23,829 nt of DNA from a virus. Positions 1-23,365 of the stretch are shown in pieces; within the stretch, counting starts at the first letter, position 1, and each line of letters opens with the position of its first letter. Below the pieces are notes generated by a model. The model saw only the letters and a program-made list of their open reading frames with translations, was not told where the DNA came from and made no database searches. The stretch is taken from positions 1 to 23,829 of the IMG/VR virus record IMGVR_UViG_3300032282_005140, one strand, 5' to 3'. The position numbers and the translations under genes were made by a program.

Positions 1-155
1 GGATTAGCCTCTGTATCTGCTGGGGCAGTTGCTGAAAAATATACAGCATTTCTATCATCTGCAAGGGTATCAATAAGATCAACATAATCACTAGATCCTG
101 GAGATTTACCTGCTCCAAATTTACCCAAAAGATACTCAATAGTCCTGACAGTCAT
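1..155 (-). CDS. Hypothetical phage protein, N-terminal part (runs off window)
   Basis: Only the first 51 codons are visible; the gene continues beyond the left edge. The peptide begins MTVRTIEYLLGKFGAGK and continues into an acidic helix-like stretch (SSDYVDLIDTL). Short openings of this style (a TIxxLLxKF stretch, then a D-rich 'DLID' segment) occur in hypothetical proteins near phage tail genes, but I cannot assign a family. The start at 155 is supported by a TATAAT box at 167-162 that ends exactly 6 nt before the ATG, giving a probable leaderless mRNA. It is divergent from the oxygenase at 211. Confidence 0.6.
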   Translation of the reverse strand, partial: MTVRTIEYLLGKFGAGKSPGSSDYVDLIDTLADDRNAVYFSATAPADTEAN

Positions 156-161
156 ACAATC

Positions 162-170
162 ATTATACCA
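162..170 (-). promoter_or_regulatory. Extended -10 promoter, leaderless, for gene 155-1
   Basis: On the - strand TGG precedes TATAAT (hexamer 167-162), an extended -10 element. The hexamer ends 6 nt before the ATG at 155, so transcription should begin at or next to the A of the start codon. No good -35 box is seen. Confidence 0.55.
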
Positions 171-195
171 CCTCAAGTTATAAATAGATAGAGTA

Positions 196-204
196 TGGTA
201 TGAT
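196..204 (+). promoter_or_regulatory. Extended -10 promoter, leaderless, for gene 211
   Basis: TGG followed by TATGAT (199-204), ending 6 nt before the ATG at 211. There is no clear -35 box. It sits back to back with the - strand promoter at 162-170. Confidence 0.5.
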
Positions 205-210
205 ATCATT

Positions 211-849
211 ATGAAAAAGTTGCATATTGATAAAGATTTATGGGTTATTGAAAATTTTTTGTCTGAAGAAGAAATTAAAATTTTGATGGGATATTGCCTG
301 GAAAAAGATAATTGGTATACAACTATGAGGTCAAAAGATGGCCTTGTGATGAATAAATATGTTGGAAGAGATTTAGATAAAGACGAAGATGGAAACATAT
401 TACAGCCTTTGGGTCACAATACTCAACATGATGTTCCAGTTTTTACAAAGCCTGGTGGTATATTTGAAAGACTTTCTATAGTTTTACCATCATCATATAG
501 ACCGCACTCAACAATTCAATCATACAAGCCAGTAGATGACCATGGCGCACTGGAAGATCTCACGATTGATTGGCATTATGAAGCATCTAATGAAAATGGT
601 ACTATTGACAATACAGTAACTGGTGGTTTTGTTGTTTATATTAATGATAATTTTGAAGGCGGAGAATTAGATTTTAAGCATAAACCATATAAAATTAAGC
701 CCAAGGCGGGGATGCTTGTTAATATTCCAGTAACCGAAGAGTATACTCATGCAGTTAGACATACGTATAAAAACATTAGACATGTTTTGTATGGTACATG
801 TTTTAAAGATATTTCTCCTGGATCTTTTAAAACTACAGATAAATGCTAA
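211..849 (+). CDS. 2OG-Fe(II) oxygenase family protein (HxE variant)
   Basis: 212 aa. Predicted double-stranded beta-helix dioxygenase that would use Fe(II), O2 and 2-oxoglutarate to hydroxylate an unknown substrate. The opening WVIENFLSEEE is typical of prolyl-4-hydroxylase-like phage and bacterial enzymes. The metal triad appears to be H122 and E124 (WHYE) with H180 (YTHAV); R190 could bind 2-oxoglutarate. NFEGGELDF (about 147-155) and the PKAGMLVNIP turn (164-173) are core-strand signatures. The acidic ligand is Glu rather than the usual Asp, so activity should not be assumed. It is transcribed alone from a leaderless promoter and followed by a second promoter 30 bases downstream. The substrate is unknown; a glycan, protein side chain or small molecule is possible. 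Confidence 0.8.
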   Translation: MKKLHIDKDLWVIENFLSEEEIKILMGYCLEKDNWYTTMRSKDGLVMNKYVGRDLDKDEDGNILQPLGHNTQHDVPVFTKPGGIFERLSIVLPSSYRPHSTIQSYKPVDDHGALEDLTIDWHYEASNENGTIDNTVTGGFVVYINDNFEGGELDFKHKPYKIKPKAGMLVNIPVTEEYTHAVRHTYKNIRHVLYGTCFKDISPGSFKTTDKC

Positions 850-865
850 GTTAAAAAGTGTAATA

Positions 866-874
866 TGGTATCAT
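866..874 (+). promoter_or_regulatory. Extended -10 promoter, leaderless, for gene 881
   Basis: TGG followed by TATCAT (869-874), ending 6 nt before the ATG at 881, the same geometry and nearly the same sequence as the element at 196-204. Confidence 0.5.
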
Positions 875-880
875 ATAAAT

Positions 881-1018
881 ATGACTCAAACCTTTGCTGA
901 CACATGCTATTTTTGTGACCAACTGGCTGAATATAACCAGGTTGTTAAAATAGAAAATAATTCATATACCGTATCTGGGGTATGTAAAGATCATTTAGAG
1001 ATGGGATTGTCTGCATAG
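881..1018 (+). CDS. Zinc-ribbon-like microprotein (45 aa)
   Basis: A longer reading frame opens upstream inside the oxygenase gene, but I place the start at 881 because a -10 box ends 6 nt before this ATG. The protein has a CYFC pair near residues 9-12 and a VCKDH pair near 34-38, a CxxC...CxxH pattern that would bind one zinc. No enzymatic domain is present. It resembles other tiny Cys-rich proteins in this window in size and layout only. Function unknown; a protein- or nucleic-acid-contact role is possible. Confidence 0.65.
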   Translation: MTQTFADTCYFCDQLAEYNQVVKIENNSYTVSGVCKDHLEMGLSA

Positions 1019-1027
1019 CAGGCATAT

Positions 1028-1056
1028 TTGACAATAATTCATGTCTTTGATATGCT
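1028..1056 (+). promoter_or_regulatory. Sigma70-type promoter, leaderless, for gene 1063
   Basis: Perfect TTGACA (1028-1033), a 17-nt spacer, then TATGCT (1051-1056) preceded by TGA (extended -10). The hexamer ends 6 nt before the ATG at 1063, so the transcript should start at the start codon. Confidence 0.7.
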
Positions 1057-1062
1057 TGTCTT

Positions 1063-1269
1063 ATGATAAGTATGGAAATACCCGATCCTTTTCAAACCTT
1101 TGTAGCCAAAAAATATGCTAACTATAAAGGTCTAGTTTATGATTTCTTTGCCAAAGAATGGTATTTAAAAACATCTTGTTGTGGTGAAGAACTTTATGCG
1201 CCAAACAAAAAGATTATGACAAAAATAAGGCTATATCACACAAGAAATGAATGTTTAGGTGGTTATTGA
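1063..1269 (+). CDS. Hypothetical small Cys-containing protein (68 aa)
   Basis: Unrecognised. The N-terminal half is aromatic and basic (FVAKKYANYKGLVYDFF); the C-terminal half holds TSCCGEELYAP and then NECLGGY, so three Cys and a His could form a metal site. An alternative ATG at 1072 exists, but the strong promoter at 1028-1056 points to 1063. Its TGA overlaps the next ATG (1269), implying translational coupling. Confidence 0.6.
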   Translation: MISMEIPDPFQTFVAKKYANYKGLVYDFFAKEWYLKTSCCGEELYAPNKKIMTKIRLYHTRNECLGGY

Positions 1270-1379
1270 TGGAAAAAAATGAATGCGGAAAGTGCTTAAT
1301 GTCTAAAAAAGATCCATTATTTTGGGAAAGTCATCAAACCATGAGCAATGGTAAAGTCTGGTGTGCAACAAAAATTTAG
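1269..1379 (+). CDS. Cys-rich microprotein (36 aa)
   Basis: It starts at an ATG overlapping the stop of the previous gene (TGATG). The sequence MEKNECGKCLMSKKDP carries a CxxC pair, and a WCATK stretch near the end has a third Cys. No known family. Coupled translation and matching base composition support a real gene, but at this length the call is tentative. Confidence 0.5.
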   Translation: MEKNECGKCLMSKKDPLFWESHQTMSNGKVWCATKI

Positions 1380-1382
1380 TTA

Positions 1383-1391
1383 TGATATACT
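1383..1391 (+). promoter_or_regulatory. Extended -10 promoter upstream of gene 1419
   Basis: TGA followed by TATACT (1386-1391). Unlike most promoters here it is followed by a leader of about 21 nt carrying a strong ribosome site (AAAGGGGG, 1406-1413) before the ATG at 1419. Confidence 0.5.
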
Positions 1392-1418
1392 TTTAATAAA
1401 CAACCAAAGGGGGACAGA

Positions 1419-1589
1419 ATGTCAGCAGCAACAGTAGAAAAGGTTATAGAAATTATTTCAACACGAAGAACACAGGTTTTAGAAGCAAATGGATTTGCTG
1501 AAAACCCAGAGGATCCAAATAACGTTCAGTTTGCATGGATTAATGGAATCTATGATGACCTTATTGAATGTATTAAGGCTTCTTCATAA
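1419..1589 (+). CDS. Hypothetical small protein (56 aa)
   Basis: It starts MSAATVEKVIEIISTRRTQ after a strong Shine-Dalgarno AAAGGGGG and ends just before the next microgene. The sequence reads as two helices separated by an acidic NPEDPNN turn. Small proteins of this type (a helix, an ExNGF motif, then FAWINGIYDDL) are seen in actinophage genomes, but no function is known. It has its own promoter and leader. Confidence 0.65.
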   Translation: MSAATVEKVIEIISTRRTQVLEANGFAENPEDPNNVQFAWINGIYDDLIECIKASS

Positions 1590-1593
1590 ATAA

Positions 1594-1698
1594 ATGTGTG
1601 ATTGTAGGGTTTGTAAATTAGAATTTTTATACCCAACAAACATTGATAGAATAGTAGAAGATGTATTTAATTATATGATGGAGGATAAAAATGGATGA
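1594..1698 (+). CDS. Cys-rich microprotein (34 aa)
   Basis: The opening MCDCRVCK has three closely spaced Cys, followed by a short amphipathic helix. It ends 8 nt inside the oxygenase gene that starts at 1691, so it could couple translation of that gene. No family recognised; it may act mainly as a leader peptide. Confidence 0.4.
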   Translation: MCDCRVCKLEFLYPTNIDRIVEDVFNYMMEDKNG

Positions 1699-2467
1699 AG
1701 CGCTTTGGAAGAAGATGACGGAGCATACTCCTCTTGATCAGTTACTTAAGATTGATGCAATTCCAGATGTTGTAAAGATAGAAGAAAACATTTGGGTTAT
1801 TAAAAATTTTGTGTCAGAAGAAATACTTGATTCATATAACAATTACATTGCATCAATTGATGAAAAAACTTGGTGGGAAAAAAACAAAGATTGGTGGATT
1901 GGAAAGTTTATATCAGTAGATGAAAACTCTGAAATATTTGCAACATCCTCAAAGGTAATAAAAAAGTTTGAATCAATACTTAATGAAGACGTTTATGTGG
2001 GTGCTTTTGGATCAATTCATAGACTAACTCCAGGGCAGGGAATGTTTATTCACACAGACAATCCTACAGAAAAAAGACGTATTTATGATGAAAATGGTCA
2101 AGAAGTTGGTGGTGCAAGTGGACACAATAATTACTGCATATTAGCCGTTGTTCTTTATTTAAATGAGTTTAATGGTGGAAACTTATATTTCCCACAAATT
2201 GGAATAGAGTATCATGGTAATCCAGGAGATCTTGTACTATTTCCAGGAACTGGAATAAAATATGATCATGGAGTAAGACCATTAGAAGATGGGCCAAACA
2301 GATATATAACAACTGGCTTTGGTTATGACCCAAGGGTAGAAATTATGAAACAAGCGCAGTATGTTTTTGAAGATATTGAAACTGGAGACTATGTACAGGT
2401 TGAGCCAGCATTGCTTAAGAATGATCCAGAAGAAGTCATGAAACTTCCTCCAAGAACGTTGTCATGA
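1691..2467 (+). CDS. 2OG-Fe(II) oxygenase (prolyl-4-hydroxylase-like)
   Basis: 258 aa. Predicted Fe(II)/2-oxoglutarate hydroxylase with the full set of active-site residues: H121 and D123 (FIHTD), H193 (YDHGVRP) and R204 for the 2-oxoglutarate carboxylate. NEFNGGNLYFP (about 158-168) and GNPGDLVLFPG (176-186) are classic core strands of the P4H-like clade. The N-terminus (EENIWVIKNFVSEE) closely matches that of the next gene. The start has a strong ribosome site (GGAGG). It overlaps the next oxygenase by 4 nt (ATGA), so the two are made together. Substrate unknown. Confidence 0.85.
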   Translation: MDEALWKKMTEHTPLDQLLKIDAIPDVVKIEENIWVIKNFVSEEILDSYNNYIASIDEKTWWEKNKDWWIGKFISVDENSEIFATSSKVIKKFESILNEDVYVGAFGSIHRLTPGQGMFIHTDNPTEKRRIYDENGQEVGGASGHNNYCILAVVLYLNEFNGGNLYFPQIGIEYHGNPGDLVLFPGTGIKYDHGVRPLEDGPNRYITTGFGYDPRVEIMKQAQYVFEDIETGDYVQVEPALLKNDPEEVMKLPPRTLS

Positions 2468-3075
2468 AAATAGAGCAAATACTTTATGATACTAAAGGTT
2501 TAACTAAAATTGAAGAAAATATTTGGGTAATACATAATTTTGTAAGCAAAGAAGAATCAAATCATTATTTAGATTTTGCTAACTCTGCCAACGAAGATGA
2601 TTGGTGGAAAGAAAATTCTGGATGGTATCAAGGTAAATATTTAAATGCATCTCAAAATAAAAAGATACAAGAAGTATCTAACAACATAATACAAAGATTT
2701 GCTTTATTGTTTAAGTCAGATGAATTTATTGAGTACGGTAGCCCTAGTTCTATTCATAGAATGAAACAGGGGCAAGAAATGTTTGTTCATGCAGACTTTA
2801 GTGAAATTGCAGAGAATGACAATGAAATAATTTTATTTAATACTGCAATATATCACAATGATGTTCCTGGAGGAGAAATATACTATCCAGAAATTGGAGC
2901 AGAGTACCATCCAACTCAAGGAGACATTGTAATACATCCAGGAACTACTAGATATAGGCATGGCGTTAGACCAGTTTTAAGTGATACCAGATACATATCA
3001 ACCTTGTGGGCTGCAAATAAAAAAGGAATAAAAATTAAAACATCTGGAAACATGTATAAGGATGATAATGGATAA
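2464..3075 (+). CDS. 2OG-Fe(II) oxygenase, tandem paralogue
   Basis: 203 aa. A shorter relative of the upstream enzyme: both share IEENIWVI-x-NFVS-x-E near the N-terminus, a DWW...GK segment, the S-I-H-R motif and the final HGVRP. The triad is H109 and D111 (FVHAD) with H166 (RHGVRP), and R176 is the likely 2-oxoglutarate anchor. It lacks the roughly 30-residue insert that the upstream protein has after the HxD motif and also its acidic C-terminal tail. Translation is coupled through an ATGA overlap with the upstream gene. It may act on the same or a related substrate. Confidence 0.83.
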   Translation: MKIEQILYDTKGLTKIEENIWVIHNFVSKEESNHYLDFANSANEDDWWKENSGWYQGKYLNASQNKKIQEVSNNIIQRFALLFKSDEFIEYGSPSSIHRMKQGQEMFVHADFSEIAENDNEIILFNTAIYHNDVPGGEIYYPEIGAEYHPTQGDIVIHPGTTRYRHGVRPVLSDTRYISTLWAANKKGIKIKTSGNMYKDDNG

Positions 3076-3772
3076 ATATATAAACATATACAGATATCCA
3101 GAAAACAATGTAAAAGCAAAACCACTTTCAGCAAAAAGAGAATGGTTAAAAAATAGTAATGGTTTACATTGCCCACCAATGATGTTGGCTAATACTCTTG
3201 GTTGGTATTATGGACTTGAAGAAGATATTACTTTTAACTGGAATGGCGAAATGATGCCAGGCAGTGTAAAAATAATTAATACAAAAACTGGAGATCCAGT
3301 ACATAACTCTATTGCAAATAATAATTTTGGAGAAGGAGTAATAACTTTTGGAGGCACAAGGGGTTTCTTTGAAACTACAGAAGGATACTCATTGCTTTTA
3401 TCTGGACCAACAAATATGTGGATTGATGGTATTCATCCTTGTACTGGGATAGTAGAAACAGATTGGTCTGCATTTCCATTTACAATGAATTGGAAAATGA
3501 CCATGACAAATCAAGACATTTTAATTCCAAAAGATTATCCAGTTATGTGTTTTATTCCAATAAAAATAGCAGAATTTGAAGAATTTAAAATAGAATATAA
3601 AAATGCAGAAAAATGGGAAAAAATTGATCAAATAAATATTTTTAGTCAAAACAGAAACAATGATGGAGTAGTCAAAGAAAATGATGAAACCCATGGATTA
3701 TACCTAAATGGCAAAAATGCATATGGTGAAAAAATAAAAGAGAGAAACAAGTTATTTAGGCTTTTTAAATAA
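3068..3772 (+). CDS. DUF6065 family protein
   Basis: 234 aa. It has the recognisable DUF6065 layout: N-terminal YRYP, then CPPMMLANTLGW, a NWNG strand, FGEGVITF, GPTNMW, and the hallmark IVETDWSAFPFTMNWK. The family has no established biochemical role. An ATG at 3062 is also possible, but AAGG at 3058-3061 is correctly spaced for 3068. It overlaps the end of the preceding oxygenase, so oxygenase-oxygenase-DUF6065 form one coupled unit. The context suggests it helps bind or process the substrate of these oxygenases; that is inference. Confidence 0.75.
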   Translation: MDKYINIYRYPENNVKAKPLSAKREWLKNSNGLHCPPMMLANTLGWYYGLEEDITFNWNGEMMPGSVKIINTKTGDPVHNSIANNNFGEGVITFGGTRGFFETTEGYSLLLSGPTNMWIDGIHPCTGIVETDWSAFPFTMNWKMTMTNQDILIPKDYPVMCFIPIKIAEFEEFKIEYKNAEKWEKIDQINIFSQNRNNDGVVKENDETHGLYLNGKNAYGEKIKERNKLFRLFK

Positions 3773-3776
3773 TACT

Positions 3777-3794
3777 TAGGTTGACTTTAACCTA
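3777..3794 (+). promoter_or_regulatory. Inverted repeat over a -35 box (possible operator)
   Basis: TAGGTT, six bases, AACCTA: a perfect 6-bp inverted repeat that contains the TTGACT -35 box of the promoter at 3781-3809. It has no T-run, so it does not look like a terminator. A repressor or activator site is possible. Confidence 0.35.
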
Positions 3795-3809
3795 CAAGTT
3801 TGATATACT
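3781..3809 (+). promoter_or_regulatory. Sigma70-type promoter, leaderless, for gene 3816
   Basis: TTGACT (3781-3786), 17-nt spacer, TGA plus TATACT (3804-3809). The -10 hexamer ends 6 nt before the ATG at 3816. Confidence 0.7.
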
Positions 3810-3815
3810 GGATAG

Positions 3816-3938
3816 ATGAATAATCATAACTGTGATTTTAAGTTAGACCTAGATGGGCAGGTCACCTGCTCTATTTGTGGTGCTATGGATGACGATATGA
3901 AGCCAGATATTTTTGAGACACAAAGGGATTTTGAATAA
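3816..3938 (+). CDS. Zinc-binding microprotein (40 aa)
   Basis: Begins MNNHNCDFKLDLDGQ, with a CSICG knuckle at residues 18-22; H4/C6 plus C18/C21 could hold one zinc. The acidic C-terminus (MDDDMKPDIFE) has no recognisable domain. It is the first gene of a run of six tiny coupled genes and starts at a leaderless promoter. Function unknown. Confidence 0.6.
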   Translation: MNNHNCDFKLDLDGQVTCSICGAMDDDMKPDIFETQRDFE

Positions 3939-3939
3939 T

Positions 3940-4475: not shown

Positions 4476-4744
4476 GTACTTGCGCTATTTGTCGCAGACA
4501 CACTGACTATCCTACAATATGGCAAGGTGCCAAATTATGTATTGACTGTGTACCTAAAGAACGGAAAGCGTTTACATATGATGTAGTGACTAAAGATGTT
4601 ACTCTTCAGGTTGTAACTAGGTCCCCTGAAAAATGGATGTTAATAGACAGAGAAACTGGACAAACATATCAAGGCAGTATAAATGGTTACTGGGATAGAC
4701 TTGATCCAGTAATTAAAGATGTTGACAACAAAAACAAGCCTTGA
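4472..4744 (+). CDS. Zinc-knuckle protein (90 aa)
   Basis: The N-terminal half carries CAICRRH (about 4-10) and LCIDCVP (about 25-31), two CxxC knuckles that should bind one zinc. The rest is a strand-rich region ending in a Lys/Asn-rich tail (DVDNKNKP). An in-frame TTG at 4460 is possible, but the ATG at 4472 is coupled to the upstream stop. The last codons contain the -35 box for the next operon (4722-4727). Unrecognised family. Confidence 0.65.
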   Translation: MSTCAICRRHTDYPTIWQGAKLCIDCVPKERKAFTYDVVTKDVTLQVVTRSPEKWMLIDRETGQTYQGSINGYWDRLDPVIKDVDNKNKP

Positions 4745-4750
4745 TATACT
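4722..4750 (+). promoter_or_regulatory. Sigma70-type promoter, leaderless, for gene 4757
   Basis: Perfect TTGACA (4722-4727), 17-nt spacer, TGA plus TATACT (4745-4750), ending 6 nt before the ATG at 4757. The -35 box is inside the preceding gene and at the centre of the palindrome TGTTGACAACA (4720-4730). Confidence 0.72.
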
Positions 4751-4756
4751 AATTAA

Positions 4757-5136: not shown

Positions 5137-5151
5137 TATTTATTTAGGCTA

Positions 5152-5157
5152 TATAAT
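5152..5157 (+). promoter_or_regulatory. -10 box, leaderless, for gene 5164
   Basis: TATAAT ends 6 nt before the ATG at 5164. Neither an extended -10 TG nor a good -35 box is seen. Confidence 0.45.
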
Positions 5158-5163
5158 GTAGGT

Positions 5164-5763
5164 ATGACAAAGCCAAATTATCCATACTACATGGTTGAAG
5201 ATTTTATAGATAAAGAATACTGCGATCAGTTGGCAAAATATTTTAAAGATAATGCTCAAGAAGATTCAAGACAATACTATAAAACATATGGCATTGACGG
5301 TAAAAAATATTTCTTTGCTGGCTATTTGCCTAAAGCAAAAGATTACGATCCAGAAATGAAGATATACGAAGCCGTTCATTTTGCTTATGATTTTTTTACA
5401 AAAAACTATGACATTGCAGGCAATTTTGAATTAAATAGAGTATCAGCAAATTTAATGTTTGAAGAATCAGAGTTAAACCCACACCACGATGACAGGGCTG
5501 GAACAACACCATTAAGTGAAATTGGAAGTAGAACGTATGTGTGTGGAATATTTTTAACAGATGATTATGAAGGTGGAGAAATTACTTTTGAAGAACATGA
5601 TGTTTCTTTTAAACCAAAGGCTGGAAGTTTATTAATGTTTCCTGGATTTAGTTCAAGGCATGGAGTAAACAAAATTGTATCGGGATTAAGATTAAATATA
5701 TTAGTTAATTTTTTTGATGTTATTGATAGAAATAAAGTAAATCCAGACTACCCTGCATACTAA
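5164..5763 (+). CDS. 2OG-Fe(II) oxygenase (prolyl-4-hydroxylase-like)
   Basis: 199 aa. A predicted Fe(II)/2-oxoglutarate hydroxylase. PHHDD at 106-110 supplies the HxD pair, H166 (SRHGV) is the distal ligand and R176 the likely 2-oxoglutarate anchor. DDYEGGEITF (133-142) and KPKAGSLLMFPG (150-161) are typical core strands. It is clearly a different branch from the 1691/2464 pair because the N-terminus (YPYYMVEDFIDKEYC) and the spacing differ. It is a single-gene unit with its own leaderless promoter. Substrate unknown. Confidence 0.85.
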   Translation: MTKPNYPYYMVEDFIDKEYCDQLAKYFKDNAQEDSRQYYKTYGIDGKKYFFAGYLPKAKDYDPEMKIYEAVHFAYDFFTKNYDIAGNFELNRVSANLMFEESELNPHHDDRAGTTPLSEIGSRTYVCGIFLTDDYEGGEITFEEHDVSFKPKAGSLLMFPGFSSRHGVNKIVSGLRLNILVNFFDVIDRNKVNPDYPAY

Positions 5764-5766
5764 AAT

Positions 5767-5795
5767 TTGCATAAAAATTATTTTTCTGATATACT
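5767..5795 (+). promoter_or_regulatory. Sigma70-type promoter, leaderless, for gene 5802
   Basis: TTGCAT (5767-5772), 17-nt spacer, TGA plus TATACT (5790-5795), ending 6 nt before the ATG at 5802. Confidence 0.68.
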
Positions 5796-5801
5796 TATTT
5801 T

Positions 5802-6011
5802 ATGTGGTCATGGGTATTAGCAGTTATTGGTGTTGCAGGAATTTATTTTGTTGGTCGTAAAACTATCTGGGGATGGCTTATTCTTTGTGCCAACGAAATT
5901 TTATGGATTACCTATGCAGTAATTACTAAACAATATGGGTTTATATTTTCAGCAATAGCCTATGCTATTGTATATATTAAATCTTTTATGCATTGGAGGA
6001 AAGATGGCTGA
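5802..6011 (+). CDS. Small integral membrane protein (69 aa)
   Basis: Two or three membrane segments: WVLAVIGVAGIYFVG (4-18), GWLILCANEILWITYAV (about 24-40) and FIFSAIAYAIVYI (47-59), ending in a basic tail (HWRKDG). Small proteins with this G-R-K-x-x-W-G-W pattern are widespread in actinophages as unnamed membrane proteins and resemble a fragment of PnuC-type transporters. A transport role is not supported at this length. Overlaps the next gene by 8 nt. Confidence 0.65.
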   Translation: MWSWVLAVIGVAGIYFVGRKTIWGWLILCANEILWITYAVITKQYGFIFSAIAYAIVYIKSFMHWRKDG

Positions 6012-6234: not shown

Positions 6235-6782
6235 TCTTTTGTGATTACAAACATCATGTCATCTGGCTTATTGTTAATTAAACGATTATCATAAAATTTA
6301 TAACTATAACTAATTAAATGATTTTTTATTGTTTCTACATTTTCAAATACCTGAATGTCTTCAATAAAATATTTACCGCCTGACTTTAATTTTGAAAAAT
6401 AATTATCAAAAGTTTTAATTTGTGCATCAACTTTATGAACTCCATCATCAATTATATAATCAAATACTTCATCTTCAAAATTTTCATCGCAAGACTTCTT
6501 ATCCATAGAGTCAATTACGTATACTGGATAGTCTATACCTTCTGGAACAACCCCATTAAACTGGGGATAAAGATCAACGCCACATACTGTTGCATCTTCA
6601 AAGTATGAGTCCCAAAGAAGCAAAGAACCTCCATGCCATACACCAATCTCAAGGATTGAAACATTTTTTGTTTTAGTCATCTCTTTTTCATATATGGGTA
6701 AATAACTATGAGGATAGTCTTTATCAGTAATAGTTCTATCTAGTATATGTCTTAAATCGTTTAATGTTTCTTGCATCCCCAT
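6231..6782 (-). CDS. Class I SAM methyltransferase (TylF/cephalosporin-hydroxylase-like)
   Basis: 183 aa. SAM-dependent methyltransferase fold: motif I LEIGVWHGGS (44-53), acidic end of strand 2 in GVDLYP (68-73), a catalytic or metal-binding IIDDGVH (about 110-116), and GGKYFIEDI in strand 5. In the TylF/MycF clade an Asp pair at this site binds Mg2+ for sugar O-methylation. Together with the nearby glycosyltransferases this suggests methylation of a sugar or surface glycan, by inference. It is alone on the - strand in the left arm, with a leaderless promoter at 6797-6789, and converges tail to tail with the 6004 gene. Confidence 0.75.
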   Translation of the reverse strand: MGMQETLNDLRHILDRTITDKDYPHSYLPIYEKEMTKTKNVSILEIGVWHGGSLLLWDSYFEDATVCGVDLYPQFNGVVPEGIDYPVYVIDSMDKKSCDENFEDEVFDYIIDDGVHKVDAQIKTFDNYFSKLKSGGKYFIEDIQVFENVETIKNHLISYSYKFYDNRLINNKPDDMMFVITKD

Positions 6783-6788
6783 TTTTTA

Positions 6789-6797
6789 ATTATATCA
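6789..6797 (-). promoter_or_regulatory. Extended -10 promoter, leaderless, for gene 6782
   Basis: On the - strand TGA then TATAAT (hexamer 6794-6789), ending 6 nt before the ATG at 6782. A TTGTCA (6815-6810) lies upstream with a short 15-nt spacer and overlaps the TTGACA of the divergent promoter. Confidence 0.55.
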
Positions 6798-8089: not shown

Positions 8090-8098
8090 TGCTATAAT
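8090..8098 (+). promoter_or_regulatory. Extended -10 promoter, leaderless, for gene 8105
   Basis: TGC then TATAAT (8093-8098), ending 6 nt before the ATG at 8105. No well-spaced -35 box. Confidence 0.6.
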
Positions 8099-8104
8099 GT
8101 TTAG

Positions 8105-8605
8105 ATGAATGAATTAATTGACATGCTTAAACGTCTTCTTGGAGATACTGTTGCCCTTAAATTTAAGGCTCACGGTTATCACTGGAATGTAGAAACTGAT
8201 GATTTTCCTCAGTACCATGATTTTTTTGGTGACATTTATGCAGAATATGATTCAGCAATTGATCCAATGGCAGAATGGATTCGCATTCTTGGGGATTACG
8301 CACCATTTAAACTTTCTAGATTGACAATGCTTAGTTCTATTCCTGAGACTGAAGTAACTTCAGACCACGAAGATATGACAATGGATCTTTATCTTTCTAA
8401 TGAAACAATGATTAATAAATTTGCTATTGCTGCTGATATGGCAACGGCTGCAAAACAATATGGACTTGCTAATTTTCTTGCTGATCGCCAAACAGCACAT
8501 CAGAAATGGTCCTGGCAATTAAAGGCTTGCTGTAGTGAAATGCTTGCCGAAGAATCAATGCCAGAGGCTGAAGTAGAAGTTTCTTCTCCAAACATTACAG
8601 AGTAA
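8105..8605 (+). CDS. Dps-like ferritin (DNA starvation/iron storage protein)
   Basis: 166 aa. Dps proteins form 12-subunit shells that oxidise Fe(II) with H2O2 and store it as mineral, protecting DNA. All ferroxidase ligands have the family spacing: H26, H38, D53 and E57 in KAHGYHWN, PQYHDFF and DPMAEW, and LGDYAP follows as expected. The length is normal. The C-terminal tail is acidic (EAEVEVSSPNITE) rather than Lys-rich, so direct DNA binding is less likely. It is transcribed from a leaderless promoter and may be co-transcribed with the glycan operon that begins 21 nt downstream. Confidence 0.88.
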   Translation: MNELIDMLKRLLGDTVALKFKAHGYHWNVETDDFPQYHDFFGDIYAEYDSAIDPMAEWIRILGDYAPFKLSRLTMLSSIPETEVTSDHEDMTMDLYLSNETMINKFAIAADMATAAKQYGLANFLADRQTAHQKWSWQLKACCSEMLAEESMPEAEVEVSSPNITE

Positions 8606-17367: not shown

Positions 17368-17369
17368 TT

Positions 17370-17510: not shown

Positions 17511-18229
17511 TACTTTAAAAAATCCTTTGCGTCAAAAAGACTTCCATCCCAAATAGTTTTTGATGCTACTGCATCTGCTTTATAAGTTCCACCTCTGCGC
17601 TTATACTCTGCAACTACCCAGGCATTTGCTACTGCAGATGGATAAACGTCAAACTTGTCTTTTGCTGCTTGAATAACTCTTGCATAAAGTTGACCGTCTG
17701 CTGGCTTACCTTTACGTTCTGAAATTATTGATCCATAGTTTGGCTTATCCTCTTTGCCAACAGAGTTGTCATACTCATCTGTGTTTGGTTTTGCTGCTTC
17801 AAACTCTGCATCTTTGCCATCGCCAATATTTTTTGGTGAACATGCAGGACAATCTGGGCAATCACAATTCATTGCCTTACATGTCTCACATCCACAATCT
17901 TTGTATCCTTCAGATGTTACTTCTTGTTCTTGAGGTGTTCCCCCAGGAATTTCTTCAATCATTTGCTTTACAACTGATGCAAATTCTTTAATTTGGTCTG
18001 CTGCTGTCATTGCCATTCCTCCAGTATTCATGCCAGAATGTGAGTCTCCAATGCCACTTCTTCTTCTACCATACCTAATAACATCATCTTTGGTAGCGTC
18101 TGGAACGTTAGCATATAGAGCCCTTACCTGGGCTGTTGCCTTACTTTTACTAGGGTGTGTCCCCATTGTCTTGCCATTGTCGTCTACAACTGCATACTGA
18201 GAGCCTGATCGTTCAATATGGTATGGCAT
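17510..18229 (-). CDS. DUF5872-containing phage protein with Cys cluster
   Basis: 239 aa. Three parts: an N-terminal strand-rich module (PYHIERSGSQYAVVDDNGK) ending in KATAQVRALYANV, a pattern common near phage prohead proteases; a central cluster with C112, C114, C117, C122, C124, C127 and C130 (seven Cys in 19 residues); and a C-terminal DUF5872-like module (FDVYPSAVANAWVVAEYKRR). The last motif is typical of small phage-associated domains. It has its own promoter at 18254-18262 and an AGGAGG site. It may be a capsid-related or DNA-contacting protein; the role is unproven. Confidence 0.65.
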   Translation of the reverse strand: MPYHIERSGSQYAVVDDNGKTMGTHPSKSKATAQVRALYANVPDATKDDVIRYGRRRSGIGDSHSGMNTGGMAMTAADQIKEFASVVKQMIEEIPGGTPQEQEVTSEGYKDCGCETCKAMNCDCPDCPACSPKNIGDGKDAEFEAAKPNTDEYDNSVGKEDKPNYGSIISERKGKPADGQLYARVIQAAKDKFDVYPSAVANAWVVAEYKRRGGTYKADAVASKTIWDGSLFDAKDFLK

Positions 18230-18253
18230 GGTTATCCTCCTAGGTATACTATG

Positions 18254-18262
18254 ATTATAGCA
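18254..18262 (-). promoter_or_regulatory. Extended -10 promoter for gene 18229
   Basis: On the - strand TGC then TATAAT (hexamer 18259-18254). Predicted start near 18247, giving a short leader of about 18 nt with AGGAGG before the ATG at 18229. Confidence 0.55.
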
Positions 18263-18264
18263 GA

Positions 18265-19242: not shown

Positions 19243-19243
19243 T

Positions 19244-19468
19244 TTATTTTTCTAACCTTACTCTCTCATCAATAACTTCAACCATAAATTTCATTATTTT
19301 TTCATACCCAATTTTGTCATCAACAACTTTATTATAATGATGAGAACAAAAAAGAATTTCTCCAGAATGTCCAATTACCTTAACATAAGCCTGTGCAGCA
19401 CAGCGATCACAACGATCTGTTGCGTCTAAAAGCCATACTTGATCTTCTTGTTCAATCATCGTATTCAT
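19244..19468 (-). CDS. DUF7455 zinc-binding protein
   Basis: 74 aa. The motif DATDRCDRCAAQAYVKV followed by LFCSHHYN is characteristic of DUF7455, an actinobacterial family: CxxC plus CxHH would bind one zinc. The start at 19468 has no obvious ribosome site; an ATG at 19459 is possible. Role unknown. It adds to the evidence for an actinobacterial host. Confidence 0.78.
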   Translation of the reverse strand: MNTMIEQEDQVWLLDATDRCDRCAAQAYVKVIGHSGEILFCSHHYNKVVDDKIGYEKIMKFMVEVIDERVRLEK

Positions 19469-19474
19469 ATTGTA

Positions 19475-19651
19475 CTACCGCTTTCTATTATCTGTAGAAT
19501 AAAATCCCGTACCGTTAAAAAGCACACCTGGCGATTGCCATTGTCTTTGCATTACTTCATTACAACACACAGGCTCAGTACTGTCACCAAAATCTCTTTT
19601 GTACTCAACAGAACTAGAGCACTGTGTGCATTTGTAATCGTATACAGGCAT
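19475..19651 (-). CDS. FmdB-type zinc ribbon protein
   Basis: 58 aa. The opening MPVYDYKCTQCS with C8 and C11, then PVCCNEVMQRQW, is the FmdB/CxxC_CxxC zinc-ribbon pattern: the first knuckle is clear, and the second appears as CC. The ending (GVLFNGTGFYSTD) is also typical. Starts by a 1-nt overlap with the stop of the DUF2061 gene (TAATG). The role of the family is unsettled, and phage copies are common. Confidence 0.75.
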   Translation of the reverse strand: MPVYDYKCTQCSSSVEYKRDFGDSTEPVCCNEVMQRQWQSPGVLFNGTGFYSTDNRKR

Positions 19652-19851
19652 TACTTTACCTTATGTCCAAACTTTACCCATAGTCTTTCATGTACAAAAT
19701 ACCCTAATGACTCAATCAAAATGTACAGAATTGCACCAAGGCTTGCATATTCCCACTCACCAGTAAACAAATAAATTATTCCAGCAAGAACTAATAGATG
19801 AAAAATTTCCCAACTAATAGTTTTAATGGAAGTTCTTTTATTTGATTCCAT
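19651..19851 (-). CDS. DUF2061 membrane protein
   Basis: 66 aa with two membrane helices (IFHLLVLAGIIYLFTG and SLGAILYILIESLGYF) and the family signatures: RTSIKTISWE at the start and YFVHERLW at the end. DUF2061 members are small bacterial inner-membrane proteins without a known function. Located 1 nt after the endolysin stop, so it may serve lysis or envelope functions. Confidence 0.75.
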   Translation of the reverse strand: MESNKRTSIKTISWEIFHLLVLAGIIYLFTGEWEYASLGAILYILIESLGYFVHERLWVKFGHKVK

Positions 19852-19852
19852 A

Positions 19853-20683
19853 TTATGATTCTACAATCATCTGGTATGTTCTCTTATCAACTTTGCCAGT
19901 TACTGTAAGAGAATGATCTTTTTGGAATTTTCTGACAGCCTTTTCTGTTCCCTTGCCAAACTTACCATCGGCAGTAATCTTAAGTTTCTTTTGGATTGTA
20001 ATTACAGGATCTCCCGTAGCACCAACCATCATTCCTTCATCTTTATTTTTTGAAGATGCAGGCTTTTTTGTGTTAGTATTTTCTAGAGCAGGCTTTTTAC
20101 CAGCAGGCTTACTTGCTTGGGCTGCAGTGTCTGTAGAGTCAACTTTAGAAAGCAAAGGAACATTTGCCTCTCCATTATAAATTGGACGACCCCAACCAAC
20201 AACTGCATTCATTAGGCCACGACCATTTTGCTTGATATATGCACGAGTTTTTTCTACGCACATTCCACCATTGCGCTGGTCTCCCTTTGCAGTTCCTGAA
20301 GTGTTTCCTTCAATAACTTGGATAGTTCCATCGTTATTGTTCTTTACACAAAGTCCTACATGAGAAATTCTATTGACACCATCATCTGGGAAATCAAAAT
20401 AAATCCAGTCACCTGGTGATGGATCATCATTACGACAATCAGCCCATCTGCTATTTTTTCTAAACCAGTCTGACGCTGCAATTGTTGCTGCTGACTTTGG
20501 ATAAGTCTTTGGATCTAGTCCAGCAGTAAATGCACACCATGAAACAAAAGATTGACACCATGGAAGAAAGTTTGCACCTATCCACTTACCATACTTTGTT
20601 TCATTATCTTTTGGACCTTCAACAGTCCCTACTTCTTTCTTTGCAACCGTAATGATTGCTTCTAATGAGCCTTTTACAGCCAT
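19853..20683 (-). CDS. Endolysin: CHAP-like peptidase plus peptidoglycan-binding domain
   Basis: 276 aa. Residues 1-165 form a CHAP/TIGR02594-type peptidase or amidase: catalytic C43 in PWCQSFVSWC, H108 in ISHVG and a following acidic partner in IEGN (125-127). After a low-complexity linker (about 180-215, Lys/Pro/Ser-rich), residues 218-276 form a PG_binding_1 domain (GATGDPVITIQKKL, DGKFGKGTEKAVRKFQ). It cleaves the host cell wall. No signal peptide, so release depends on a holin. Strong AGGAGGG site and own promoter. Confidence 0.85.
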   Translation of the reverse strand: MAVKGSLEAIITVAKKEVGTVEGPKDNETKYGKWIGANFLPWCQSFVSWCAFTAGLDPKTYPKSAATIAASDWFRKNSRWADCRNDDPSPGDWIYFDFPDDGVNRISHVGLCVKNNNDGTIQVIEGNTSGTAKGDQRNGGMCVEKTRAYIKQNGRGLMNAVVGWGRPIYNGEANVPLLSKVDSTDTAAQASKPAGKKPALENTNTKKPASSKNKDEGMMVGATGDPVITIQKKLKITADGKFGKGTEKAVRKFQKDHSLTVTGKVDKRTYQMIVES

Positions 20684-20710
20684 AAAACCCTCCTAAAGTT
20701 TGTTATATCT

Positions 20711-20739
20711 ATTATAGCAAAGAATGAGCAGTTTTACAA
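20711..20739 (-). promoter_or_regulatory. Promoter for the endolysin gene
   Basis: On the - strand TTGTAA (20739-20734), 17-nt spacer, TGC plus TATAAT (20716-20711). A leader of about 20 nt carries AGGAGGG before the ATG at 20683. Confidence 0.65.
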
Positions 20740-20773
20740 CTTACTCAGGTTGTCCCAGGTAGCGTCCTGAAAT

Positions 20774-21190
20774 TTATTTAATGGTGATTGATTTAGGCTT
20801 TTTATCTTCAGGAACAATTCTCTCAACATTAATGTTAAGCATTCCATCATTCATTTTTGCCCCAGTTACTTCCATGTATTCGCCAAGAGCAAATGATCGT
20901 GTAAACTTACGACCCGCAATACCCTTGTGAACCACTTCAGCGTCTGTTACTTCAACAATTTCACCCTTAATAATTAGTGTGCCATTGTCCACCGACACAT
21001 CAATATCTTCTTTTCCAAAACCTGCTATAGCAATAGAAATTAAATATGTATCTTCATCTAGTTTAAGAAGATCATACGGAGGATATGATTGTGAATTGAT
21101 TTTGTGTGCATTATTTAAGCGACCCAACTCTCTGTTGAATCCAATAAAAAATGGATCATTAAATAGATCCAGTGTGAAGTTTGTTACCAT
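20774..21190 (-). CDS. Hsp20 small heat-shock protein
   Basis: 138 aa. ATP-independent chaperone that holds unfolding proteins. The alpha-crystallin domain spans about 38-125: YDLLKLDEDTYLISIAIAGF, DIDVSVDNGTLIIKG, and the closing G-M-L-N-I-N-V that replaces the common G-x-L-x-(I/V) motif. The C-terminal IT-I tail (KSITIK) supports oligomer contacts. T4-like and cyanophage genomes also carry Hsp20 genes, so a phage copy is not surprising. Its 5' leader can fold over the ribosome site (see the feature at 21192-21243). Confidence 0.9.
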   Translation of the reverse strand: MVTNFTLDLFNDPFFIGFNRELGRLNNAHKINSQSYPPYDLLKLDEDTYLISIAIAGFGKEDIDVSVDNGTLIIKGEIVEVTDAEVVHKGIAGRKFTRSFALGEYMEVTGAKMNDGMLNINVERIVPEDKKPKSITIK

Positions 21191-21191
21191 G

Positions 21192-21243
21192 TTATTCCCC
21201 TTTCAAGCGAATAAGTTAATGTGCTCCTCATTTGAGCAAGCAC
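21192..21243 (-). promoter_or_regulatory. Possible ROSE-like RNA thermometer in the Hsp20 leader
   Basis: Two hairpins in the leader. The upstream one (21243-21221) pairs GTGCT with AGCAC and CTC with GAG around an AAAT loop, and begins at the predicted transcript start. The downstream one (21214-21192) pairs TTATTC with GAATAA, then a G-G mismatch, then CTT with AGG around GAA, so it encloses the AAGGGG ribosome site. UCGCU opposite the ribosome site matches the UYGCU box known from ROSE elements of small heat-shock genes. Confidence 0.45.
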
Positions 21244-21249
21244 TAAATA

Positions 21250-21258
21250 ATTATATCA
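21250..21258 (-). promoter_or_regulatory. Extended -10 promoter for the Hsp20 gene
   Basis: On the - strand TGA then TATAAT (hexamer 21255-21250); predicted start at 21243, the first base of the upstream leader hairpin. It lies in the gap after the TauD-like gene. Confidence 0.55.
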
Positions 21259-21263
21259 TAAAA

Positions 21264-22100
21264 TTAATTTGGTATTAAAAATGTAAAGTCATTAAACTGG
21301 TGTCCCCAGATTCCAGTAAATTGTCTATCTTTGGGGTCAAAACCACCAGTTACTGCATGGGCAAGTTTAAACATGTCTGGAACAAAAAGATCGCCTTGTT
21401 CCCACCTATGAACAATCCTAATGTCTTCATTGTTTTTTACTTGATCTGAAAACCAAAAAGAAATTTCATTAAAGTTTTCAGTTTGTTCTTGAGTTGGCTC
21501 TTGGCCATCAAATAAAACTAATGCAGAAGGACTTTCTGAATCTTTTAAAACACGCATTCTAATTAAAGGATTTTCAGTAAGCCAGTGATTTTTAATTACA
21601 TTGTAGTCATACTTTACCATTGTAGAGTTACCATTTTTATTATCAAATTCTATAGTATTAGTTATGCACTTTGATAAAAAATGTTTCCAATCATCGGACA
21701 TAGTATTATAAACTTTTTCTGAATCAACAAAATAAGTTTTTCCGTTATCTGAGTCTGTTGTAAAAGTTGACATGTTCCAAGTTGAAGCAACAATTGGATT
21801 TTTGTAGTAAACATGCTCAATGTGCCATTTAAGCATTACGTCATCTTTTCCAGCAATATTAATTTCATCATTGTGTGAATGATTTTCTGTATAACTATAG
21901 AGTTTTTTGGCAGGTGATTCATTTGTATACCAACCAAAAAGATCACCTAAAGTTTTATGAAATGCTGAGTGTTCTTCACTGTTTAAGTTTGCATTTCTAA
22001 AAACTAAAAAAGAATTATTTATAAATTTATTTTTGTAGTAGTCAAAATTTTCTACTATTTCTTCTGTTCCTGGAAACATAATTGGTTCTGTATAGATCAT
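21264..22100 (-). CDS. TauD/TfdA-like 2-oxoglutarate dioxygenase
   Basis: 278 aa. The TauD clade uses Fe(II) and 2-oxoglutarate to oxidise small molecules. KWHIEHVYY supplies H93 and E95, an HxE instead of HxD. RWEQGDLFVPDMFKLAHAV supplies the typical W-x-x-G-D turn and the distal H248, and R259 is a candidate 2-oxoglutarate anchor. The N-terminal helix and FLVFRNANLN strand also fit. A TATAAT at 22134-22129 and AAAAGGAAAA ribosome site precede it. It is isolated from the five related genes in the left arm. Substrate unknown. Confidence 0.8.
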   Translation of the reverse strand: MIYTEPIMFPGTEEIVENFDYYKNKFINNSFLVFRNANLNSEEHSAFHKTLGDLFGWYTNESPAKKLYSYTENHSHNDEINIAGKDDVMLKWHIEHVYYKNPIVASTWNMSTFTTDSDNGKTYFVDSEKVYNTMSDDWKHFLSKCITNTIEFDNKNGNSTMVKYDYNVIKNHWLTENPLIRMRVLKDSESPSALVLFDGQEPTQEQTENFNEISFWFSDQVKNNEDIRIVHRWEQGDLFVPDMFKLAHAVTGGFDPKDRQFTGIWGHQFNDFTFLIPN

Positions 22101-22128
22101 TTATTATTTTCCTTTTCTTGATAATTTT

Positions 22129-22134
22129 ATTATA
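22129..22134 (-). promoter_or_regulatory. -10 box upstream of the TauD-like gene
   Basis: TATAAT on the - strand with a 21-nt leader containing AAAAGGAAAA before the ATG at 22100. No clear -35 box; the tRNA-Met gene lies just upstream. Confidence 0.4.
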
Positions 22135-22144
22135 CATCATGATT

Positions 22145-22221
22145 TGGTACACCAGATAGGACTTGAACCTATGATAACCGAATTATGAGTTCGGGGCCTT
22201 AACCAACTTGGCTACTGGTGT
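22145..22221 (-). tRNA. tRNA-Met (CAT)
   Basis: Acceptor ACACCAG/CTGGTGT, D stem GCC/GGC, anticodon stem CCGAA/TTCGG with loop CTCATAA (anticodon CAT), T stem ATAGG/CCTAT, and encoded CCA (22147-22145). The CAT anticodon could also be Ile2 after lysidine modification; elongator Met is the default call. Confidence 0.88.
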
Positions 22222-22222
22222 A

Positions 22223-22298
22223 TGGCTGGTCTGGCAGGTCACGATCCTGCGACTTCCGAATTAACAGTTCGGCACTCTACCAACTGAGTTACAGACCA
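22223..22298 (-). tRNA. tRNA-Asn (GTT)
   Basis: Acceptor TGGTCTG/CAGACCA, anticodon stem CCGAA/TTCGG with loop CTGTTAA (anticodon GTT), T stem GCAGG/CCTGC, discriminator G and encoded CCA. The T loop (ATCGTGA) departs from the usual TTCGAAT pattern. It lies 10 nt after the protease stop and 1 nt before tRNA-Met. Confidence 0.88.
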
Positions 22299-22308
22299 AA
22301 ACCTATTG

Positions 22309-23145
22309 TTATCCTACGTAAGGATAACTTTGTGCTTTAGGAAGAGAAGCAATATATTCACTCCAAGATCCAGAAGTTTTTCGTGTTACTGCCAATGTTG
22401 CTACAACTGGTGTTGCAACTGATGTTCCTGTAATTGTCATTGTCTTGCAACCACAATAACCCTTTACAGATGCATCGCCTCGCCCAACCATAGCAAGACC
22501 AGGACCTACGTTTGCATAAGATGCAAATGTTAGATCTGGCTTAAGTGCACTTACTGAAATTACTCCAGTTACACAGGAAGGAAATCCAATTTGATTTTTC
22601 TTTGCATCATTTCCAGTTGCAACAAATGTTGGAACATTTTGTACGTTTAATGATTTTACTGCATCAGAAAAAATTGTATCAGTTGGACATGTTCCAGCAG
22701 CAAAATTGCTTCTTGACTGACTAATTGATACGGCCTTAATATTAAGTCGTGATGAGTTAGCAGAAACCCAGTTCATTGCACGACTTACAGAACTTCCATC
22801 ATTATGCATTGCAGAGAACTTGGTGTATACATTTACATCCGAAATTCTTACAAAGACAATCTTAATATTTGGGTTTGCCAATACTGCTGCTTGTGCAATA
22901 TTAAAACCATGATCAATTCCATTAATCTTCCAATCATTGACCATTGCTGATCCTGGACCTTCTTGAAAATTAGTTCCATTTGGACAAGTATTTAGTGTAA
23001 AACATGCCTCATATACTACATTGCTATTCTTTGAAGCATCCATTGCTGTATCAATAATTGCAATTGTGTTTGTCTCTGCTGCCTGAACTGGTTGAACTAC
23101 AGCAAATCCAAGAATTACTGATAGTGTTAACGCTACCTTTTTCAT
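22309..23145 (-). CDS. Secreted subtilisin-like serine protease (S8)
   Basis: 278 aa. Residues 1-22 are a clean signal peptide (MKKVALTLSVILGFAVVQPV then QA). The mature part has all S8 catalytic positions: D32 in IAIIDTAMD, H79 in GIDHGFNIA, the oxyanion Asn N179 in ATGND, and S242 in GTSVATPVVA. There is no recognisable I9 propeptide, since the Asp motif follows the signal peptide almost directly. The start is fixed by AAAGGGGTAAAA just upstream. Possibly acts on host cell-surface or extracellular proteins. Confidence 0.85.
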   Translation of the reverse strand: MKKVALTLSVILGFAVVQPVQAAETNTIAIIDTAMDASKNSNVVYEACFTLNTCPNGTNFQEGPGSAMVNDWKINGIDHGFNIAQAAVLANPNIKIVFVRISDVNVYTKFSAMHNDGSSVSRAMNWVSANSSRLNIKAVSISQSRSNFAAGTCPTDTIFSDAVKSLNVQNVPTFVATGNDAKKNQIGFPSCVTGVISVSALKPDLTFASYANVGPGLAMVGRGDASVKGYCGCKTMTITGTSVATPVVATLAVTRKTSGSWSEYIASLPKAQSYPYVG

Positions 23146-23147
23146 TT

Positions 23148-23330
23148 TTACCCCTTTAGTTTGATTACTACTTGACATGGGTCGCCACCTGCTTCCCACT
23201 CTTCTTGCTCTTCTTCACTCATGTATGGATCACCATCATGAGTATTACAGAACGGTTCTGTTATCCAGCCCCGATCAATTCCATTATTTAACCAGATTTC
23301 AAACTCTAAACTATCTTCATCGTTAATCAT
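23148..23330 (-). CDS. Small acidic protein (60 aa)
   Basis: The pattern FCNTHDGDPYMSEEEQEEW followed by GGDPC is a familiar look for small actinophage proteins with no known role; two Cys and a His near Asp could bind metal. It starts at a leaderless promoter. Its stop sits in the ribosome site of the protease gene (2 nt before the protease ATG), so the two are translated as a pair. Confidence 0.65.
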   Translation of the reverse strand: MINDEDSLEFEIWLNNGIDRGWITEPFCNTHDGDPYMSEEEQEEWEAGGDPCQVVIKLKG

Positions 23331-23336
23331 ATATTA

Positions 23337-23365
23337 AGTATATCCTTAAACGCTTACTACGTCAA
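23337..23365 (-). promoter_or_regulatory. Sigma70-type promoter, leaderless, for gene 23330
   Basis: On the - strand TTGACG (23365-23360), 17-nt spacer, TATACT (23342-23337), ending 6 nt before the ATG at 23330. The -35 box and part of the spacer lie inside the end of the upstream peptidase gene. Confidence 0.72.

What the first reader, a model, noticed from the sequence alone, without database searches (positions are those of the whole stretch)
155..23342. A fixed leaderless promoter geometry used on both strands
At twelve starts (155-, 211, 881, 1063, 3816, 4757, 5164, 5802, 6782-, 7441, 8105, 23330-) the -10 hexamer ends exactly 6 nt before the start codon, so the transcript should begin at the initiator base. 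Ten of the twelve also carry the extended TGn before the hexamer (not 5164 or 23330), and the clearest (1028, 3781, 4722, 5767, 23365) have a -35 with a 17-nt spacer. Leaderless mRNAs are well known in Actinobacteria, but such an invariant distance in a phage is striking. It may be an adaptation to compact gene packing.
Basis: partly seen in the sequence, partly recalled or inferred. Interest (0 to 1): 0.75.

Follow-up and report, generated by a model that had tools for sequence, protein, structure and literature searches.

The report
Leaderless promoters of an actinobacterial phage
This fragment of a virus that probably infects actinobacteria places a promoter exactly six bases in front of twelve of its genes, so their messages should begin right at the start codon; hosts of this kind are known to do this, and here it turns out to be a conserved habit across a large group of uncultured actinobacterial phages.

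Summary
In detail: at all 12 starts a -10 hexamer ends exactly 6 nt before the start codon, 10 of 12 with extended TGn, and the five -35/17-nt spacers exist. A blind rule recovers exactly these 12 sites at distance 6 and only 0-2 at each other distance; shuffles give 0.6 against 9 observed. It is not 'invariant' for the phage: other units in the same contig have the -10 at 24-28 nt, mostly with a Shine-Dalgarno. The window is an IMG/VR viral fragment carrying WhiB, an actinophage marker. Related Dps- and WhiB-bearing contigs keep the geometry (119 and 41 sites per ~1 Mb, sharply at d=6), cyanophages barely do (9). Orthologues keep it with diverged flanks, and TTGAC sits 17 bp upstream. Best reading: host SigA-type extended -10 promoters giving leaderless mRNAs, as in Actinobacteria generally and as predicted in cluster O mycobacteriophages. 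'Compact packing' is not supported for co-directional genes, although divergent leaderless pairs with 37-68 nt between start codons are over-represented. New member of a known kind; transcript 5' ends remain unmapped.

The parts
153..170 (-). Leaderless promoter/start: TGG TATAAT N6 ATG, start at 155 (gene runs off the contig end)
   Evidence: one arm of a 55-nt divergent leaderless pair
196..213 (+). Leaderless promoter/start: TGG TATGAT N6 ATG, start 211, 2OG-Fe(II) oxygenase (Pfam PF13640)
   Evidence: geometry kept in L030 orthologue
866..883 (+). Leaderless promoter/start: TGG TATCAT N6 ATG, start 881, 45-aa protein
   Evidence: no orthologue found to test it
1028..1065 (+). TTGACA-17-(TGA)TATGCT-N6-ATG, start 1063, 68-aa protein
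   Evidence: L030 orthologue keeps it
3781..3818 (+). TTGACT-17-(TGA)TATACT-N6-ATG, start 3816, 40-aa protein
   Evidence: kept in L030 and L086
4722..4759 (+). TTGACA-17-(TGA)TATACT-N6-ATG, start 4757; -35 inside the preceding gene, whose TGA stop codon is the TGn of the extended -10
   Evidence: kept in L030, L031, L038 with diverged spacer sequence
5152..5166 (+). TATAAT-N6-ATG without TGn, start 5164, 2OG-Fe(II) oxygenase
5767..5804 (+). TTGCAT-17-(TGA)TATACT-N6-ATG, start 5802, 69-aa membrane protein
   Evidence: L049 keeps TGG TAAACT N6 ATG; most other orthologues sit inside operons without a -10
6780..6797 (-). TGA TATAAT N6 ATG, start 6782, methyltransferase-like protein
   Evidence: kept in L030
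7426..7443 (+). TGT TATAAT N6 GTG, start 7441, JmjC_2-like protein, 20 nt after tRNA-Arg; weakest case because GTG starts show no excess at this distance in relatives
8090..8107 (+). TGC TATAAT N6 ATG, start 8105, Dps/ferritin-like protein
   Evidence: about 70 of 80 Dps relatives keep a -10 at 6-7 nt
23328..23365 (-). TTGACG-17-TATACT-N6-ATG without TGn, start 23330, 60-aa protein; -35 lies in the 3' end of the HslV-like gene
   Evidence: kept in L011, L082, L024
1383..1421 (+). Contrast class: TGATATACT 27 nt before the ATG at 1419, with AAAGG Shine-Dalgarno
18229..18261 (-). Contrast class: TGCTATAAT 24 nt before the ATG at 18229, with AGGAGG; leader and SD kept in L030, L038, L018
20683..20718 (-). 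Contrast class: TGCTATAAT 27 nt before the endolysin ATG at 20683, with AGGAGG; similar in L018, L039, L072
15868..16155 (-). WhiB-family transcription factor gene (actinophage marker), SD-led

Best explanation
[quoted passage not shown] the mRNAs are leaderless and are translated from a 5'-terminal AUG (once GUG) without a Shine-Dalgarno, as actinobacterial hosts do for many of their own genes. Each serves a gene or short operon at the head of a transcription unit; downstream genes and another class of unit use Shine-Dalgarno initiation, with the same kind of promoter placed 24-28 nt upstream. Shown here: the geometry, its excess over chance, the lack of a Shine-Dalgarno between promoter and start, -35 enrichment and conservation in related phages. 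Inferred: the actual 5' ends, use of the host sigma factor, translation from the bare 5' end, and the exact host.
For: Spacing peak at exactly 6 in the window. In 81 Dps-phage loci, 119 open frames at d=6 against a mean of 4.8 at d=8-19; WhiB-phage loci 41 against 3.3; cyanophage control 9 against 2.8. ATG only, with control motifs flat. Of 71 d=6 open frames in the Dps set none has a Shine-Dalgarno, whereas the d=23-27 sites often do. Among 79 non-Dps d=6 sites, TTGAC occurs at spacer 17 in 11, at 18 in 2, at 12-16 and 19-23 in none, and T is enriched at -1. Orthologues keep the geometry when they head a unit and lack it inside operons. WhiB in the window, in 51 of 81 Dps loci and 0 of 80 comparison loci, and in 11 of 12 longer Dps contigs. 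In Actinobacteria a TANNNT about 12 bp before the start marks leaderless genes, over 20% of genes (PMC3160421); TSS mapping gives 26% in M. tuberculosis (PMC3898074); -10 and SD are mutually exclusive upstream signals (PMC4633059).
Against: No transcript 5' ends exist for this phage. The host is inferred from WhiB and an endolysin related to Streptomyces phage enzymes; no host genome could be examined. 7441 uses GTG, which shows no excess at d=6 in relatives. 881, 5164 and 7441 have no informative orthologue. Some relatives use 5 or 7 nt, so the first transcribed base could be one off in some cases.
Confidence: 0.9

Rival explanations
1. Chance: AT-rich sequence is full of TATNNT near ATG, and the reader picked the ones at distance 6.
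For: TANNNT and TATNNT alone show little or no excess at d=6 in the window.
Against: Extended or near-consensus hexamers peak sharply at d=6 only; the peak recurs in about 2 Mb of related contigs but hardly in cyanophages of similar GC; orthologues keep it.
Confidence: 0.02
2. A phage-directed promoter class (phage sigma factor, or a factor acting with host polymerase at extended -10 sites) rather than plain host SigA promoters; mRNAs still leaderless.
For: 7 of 12 window sites lack a clear -35 at 17 nt and rely on TGn or the hexamer alone; M. tuberculosis promoters carry TGN in only 7% of cases (PMC3898074); isolated Nanopelagicales phages encode a sigma-70 factor (PMC10202952).
Against: No sigma-factor gene was recognised in the window; where a -35 exists it is the ordinary TTGAC at 17 bp; the SD-leadered units use the same TGNTATAAT; TG peaks are known in low-GC genomes (PMC3160421).
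Confidence: 0.12
3. Start codons are misassigned and the true starts lie downstream with ordinary leaders.
For: Starts were taken from open frames only.
Against: Dps, 4757, 1063, 5802 and 6782 proteins align from residue 1 in relatives, including relatives where the same ATG is used inside an operon without any -10.
Confidence: 0.03
4. The geometry is an adaptation to compact gene packing (a claim about cause, compatible with the leaderless mechanism).
For: Gaps before the window's co-directional leaderless genes are 12-46 nt; divergent leaderless pairs leave only 37-68 nt between start codons.
Against: Gaps to the upstream same-strand gene do not differ between leaderless and SD-leadered units (p=0.85 and 0.37); a saving of about 20 nt at 12 genes is about 1% of the contig.
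Confidence: 0.12

Closest known systems
Leaderless (TA-led) genes of Actinobacteria (Zheng 2011 PMC3160421; Cortes 2013 PMC3898074; Shell 2015 PMC4633059)
   Same: -10 hexamer beginning 12 bp before the start codon, no Shine-Dalgarno, AUG/GUG starts, coexisting with SD-led genes
   Different: Here nearly always extended TGn and near-consensus TATAAT/TATACT, a detectable -35 at 17 bp, and AUG almost exclusively; in a phage
Cluster O mycobacteriophage promoters PL1/PR2/PL2 (PMC4351075)
   Same: SigA-like promoters predicted to start transcription at the first base of the start codon, including a divergent pair
   Different: A few promoters in cultured mycobacteriophages; here 12 in 24 kb of an AT-rich uncultured phage, conserved across many contigs
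Corynephage gene DIP0180 in C. diphtheriae (PMC5784534)
   Same: Leaderless transcript of an actinobacterial prophage gene shown by TSS mapping
   Different: One of six mapped prophage TSSs; mapped rather than predicted
Lactococcal leaderless mRNAs and bimodal leader lengths (PMC10986495; TG peak noted in PMC3160421)
   Same: Low GC, extended -10 (TG), two discrete leader-length classes
   Different: Host lineage; leadered class there about 40 nt, here about 17-22 nt
E. coli bidirectional promoters (PMC12825309)
   Same: Divergent starts so close that two polymerases must exclude each other
   Different: There TSSs are 10-23 bp apart on one pseudo-symmetrical core; here two complete back-to-back -10 elements, starts 37-68 nt apart

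Membership tests
Actinobacterial-type leaderless transcription unit | -10 hexamer ending about 6-7 nt before the start codon | tested here: met
   12/12 sites; relatives
Actinobacterial-type leaderless transcription unit | No Shine-Dalgarno between promoter and start codon | tested here: met
   none at the 12 starts (SD-like strings at 155- and 23330- lie upstream of the -10); 0 of 71 d=6 sites in the Dps set
Actinobacterial-type leaderless transcription unit | Start codon AUG or GUG at the 5' end | tested here: met
   11 ATG, 1 GTG; excess only for ATG in relatives
Actinobacterial-type leaderless transcription unit | Mapped TSS at the start codon | not testable with these tools
   No transcript data for this uncultured phage
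Actinobacterial-type leaderless transcription unit | Actinobacterial host | tested here: inconclusive
   WhiB and endolysin similarity to Streptomyces phages point to it; no host genome examined
Extended -10 sigma-70-type promoter | TGn directly upstream of the hexamer | tested here: met
   10 of 12; TGNTATNNT-N6-ATG 9 observed, 0.62 expected
Sigma-70-type promoter | -35 TTGAC at a 16-18 bp spacer | tested here: met
   TTGAC at 17 bp at 4 window sites (1063, 3816, 4757, 23330-) and TTGCAT at 5802; group enrichment only at 17-18 bp; 7 of 12 sites lack it
E. coli-type bidirectional promoter | Divergent TSSs 10-23 bp apart on a shared core | tested here: not met
   Starts in divergent pairs are 37-68 nt apart with separate -10s

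The most novel reading that the evidence does not exclude
Leaderless and Shine-Dalgarno units form two regulated classes of the phage programme: accessory and host-interaction genes (Dps, oxygenases, small proteins) on leaderless mRNAs and lysis or late genes on SD-led mRNAs, so that a change in ribosome state during infection shifts output between them, with the 37-68 nt back-to-back leaderless pairs acting as mutually exclusive promoter switches.
Probability: 0.1. Interest if true: 0.7.

Novelty: new member of a known kind. Interest (0 to 1): 0.45.

Why it matters
It shows by sequence conservation that a large group of uncultured actinobacterial phages relies on leaderless expression for many genes, which matters for start-site annotation (the promoter pins the start codon to the base), for detecting actinophages in metagenomes by a DNA signature, and for asking why phages mix leaderless and Shine-Dalgarno initiation in one genome.

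Tried and rejected
Bare TANNNT/TATNNT tests were uninformative in AT-rich DNA. A relative search with the 5164 oxygenase found nothing. The genome-contig scan with Dps gave only one contig, labelled as a gammaproteobacterial MAG and more likely a misbinned phage contig, so no host genome could be compared; relatives cannot be drawn for a virus record. The INPHARED collection has no close nucleotide relative and lacks KU886271, KU886273 and AY129335. Literature searches for leaderless together with actinophage or Nanopelagicales found no report on these phages. Chance and misassigned starts were considered and rejected; packing was tested and not supported for co-directional genes.
Full report
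What the window is. The window is a whole IMG/VR virus record of 23,829 bases, linear and probably a fragment, about 33% GC, with four tRNA genes, a WhiB-family regulator, a Dps-like ferritin, several 2OG-Fe(II) oxygenases, and an SNase-like nuclease, an endolysin and an HslV-like peptidase. It has no close nucleotide relative among 50,697 deposited phages. WhiB matches are in Streptomyces and Rhodococcus phages only and the endolysin matches mostly Streptomyces phages; WhiB is treated in the literature as an indicator of actinophages (PMC10202952), and WhiB-bearing phages of about 33-36% GC have been found in Ca. Actinomarinales single cells (PMC7771536). The host is therefore probably an actinobacterium, but which one is unknown.

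The observation. All twelve starts were checked base by base and are as described: a -10 hexamer ends exactly 6 nt before the start codon, with TGn at ten. The claimed -35s with 17-nt spacers are present, the one at 5767 being weak (TTGCAT). TGNTATNNT followed by ATG occurs nine times at distance 6 and 0-2 times at every other distance; shuffles expect 0.62 and never exceeded 4.

Not the only class. The gene-by-gene table shows two kinds of transcription unit. The twelve have no Shine-Dalgarno downstream of their -10. Others (1419, 18229-, 20683-, 22100-) have the same sort of -10 at 24-28 nt and a Shine-Dalgarno, and 6865 has a -10 at 27 nt with no clear one; genes inside operons have overlapping starts with or without a Shine-Dalgarno. 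So the distance is fixed within one class and not a property of all phage promoters.

Conservation. Relatives of the Dps protein were found in 80 viral contigs. About 70 of them have TATAAT, TACAAT or TATACT 6 or 7 nt before the Dps ATG although the flanks differ; a handful have AAGGAG instead. In the 987 kb around them, TGNTATAAT-to-ATG distances peak at 6 (78 sites, 92% opening a frame of 40 aa or more), with small shoulders at 7 and 5. Leaving out the Dps genes, 79 such sites remain in 42 loci, and TTGAC lies 17 bp upstream at 11 and 18 bp at 2 of them and at no other spacer from 12 to 23. None of 71 d=6 frames carries a Shine-Dalgarno, unlike many of the d=23-27 frames. For the window's own genes, orthologues of 211, 1063, 3816, 4757, 6782- and 23330- keep the geometry in one to three relatives each while spacer and flanks have diverged; where the orthologue sits inside an operon the -10 is absent, and SD-led genes keep their Shine-Dalgarno.

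Controls. The Dps set carries WhiB in 51 of 81 loci against none of 80 comparison contigs, and in 11 of 12 longer contigs. A second set fetched with WhiB shows the same peak (41 at d=6, mean 3.3 at d=8-19). Cyanophage contigs of similar GC fetched with psbA show 9 against 2.8. Per 100 kb the rates are 12.0 (Dps), 4.2 (WhiB) and 1.1 (cyanophage). The two actinophage sets overlap in part (several contigs are common to both). The window's density (5.0 sites per 10 kb) is high but within the range of its relatives (median 1.7, maximum 7.5).

Mechanism. With the hexamer at -12 to -7, the 6-nt spacing puts +1 on the A of ATG. In Actinobacteria such TANNNT signals about 12 bp before the start mark leaderless genes, over 20% of genes (PMC3160421); TSS mapping gives 26% in M. 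tuberculosis (PMC3898074) and 20% in C. diphtheriae, where about 80% of leaderless starts are AUG (PMC5784534); a 5' ATG or GTG is necessary and sufficient in mycobacteria and a -10 and a Shine-Dalgarno are mutually exclusive upstream of genes (PMC4633059). The extended TGn is rare in M. tuberculosis (7%) but a TG peak is known in low-GC genomes (PMC3160421), so its frequency here fits an AT-rich system. That transcription starts at the start codon, by host SigA, is inference; no 5' ends exist.

Compact packing. Gaps between the upstream same-strand gene and the start do not differ between leaderless and SD-leadered units in either phage set (p=0.85 and 0.37), so packing is not a supported cause for co-directional genes. 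There is one clear spatial use: divergent leaderless pairs. The 155-/211+ pair has 55 nt between the start codons. Across the actinophage loci 23 distinct divergent pairs closer than 130 nt were found, 21 of them with 37-68 nt between start codons in three clusters (37-39, 51-57, 67-68), none in cyanophages and 3 in the comparison contigs; 35 raw pairs against 3.3 expected under random shifts, and none at control distances. From about 50 nt upward a -35 at 17 bp no longer overlaps the partner's extended -10, which may explain the middle cluster (inference). The clusters rest on roughly 15 independent families, so the spacing classes are only suggestive.

Verdict. A real, well conserved feature, correctly read as leaderless promoters, and a new member of a known kind. 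Cluster O mycobacteriophages were already predicted to have such promoters (PMC4351075) and one corynephage gene is leaderless by TSS mapping (PMC5784534). What is added is its extent in a large group of uncultured actinophages, the coexistence with an SD class at a second distance, and the divergent leaderless pairs.

Noticed in passing
window 155-211; L242 13614-13668; L030; L036; L049 and others: Back-to-back leaderless promoters with only 37-39, 51-57 or 67-68 nt between divergent start codons; far above random expectation and absent from cyanophage controls. Two polymerases could not sit there together.
   Followed up: partly
window 4742-4750: The TGA stop codon of the preceding gene is at the same time the TGn of the extended -10 of the next gene; the same 12-nt gap occurs 5 times among 89 leaderless sites in Dps phages.
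   Followed up: partly
window 211, 1691, 2464, 5164, 7441, 21264-: Several divergent oxygenase-like proteins in one 24-kb phage fragment: 211 and 5164 match PF13640 and 7441 matches JmjC_2; 1691, 2464 and 21264- look similar by eye only.
   Followed up: no
window 22309-23145-: Secreted-looking S8 (subtilase) protease next to an HslV-like peptidase in a phage.
   Followed up: no
window 8105-8605: Phage-encoded Dps-like ferritin with at least 118 relatives in IMG/VR contigs but only one distant match (Synechococcus phage S-SRM01, two records) among deposited phages.
   Followed up: partly
L089 (CAIOZF010000052.1): Contig labelled as a gammaproteobacterial MAG carries the actinophage-type Dps; probably a misbinned phage contig.
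   Followed up: no
window 3062-3772: DUF6065 protein inside the oxygenase operon; distant relatives in L052, L084, L088.
   Followed up: no
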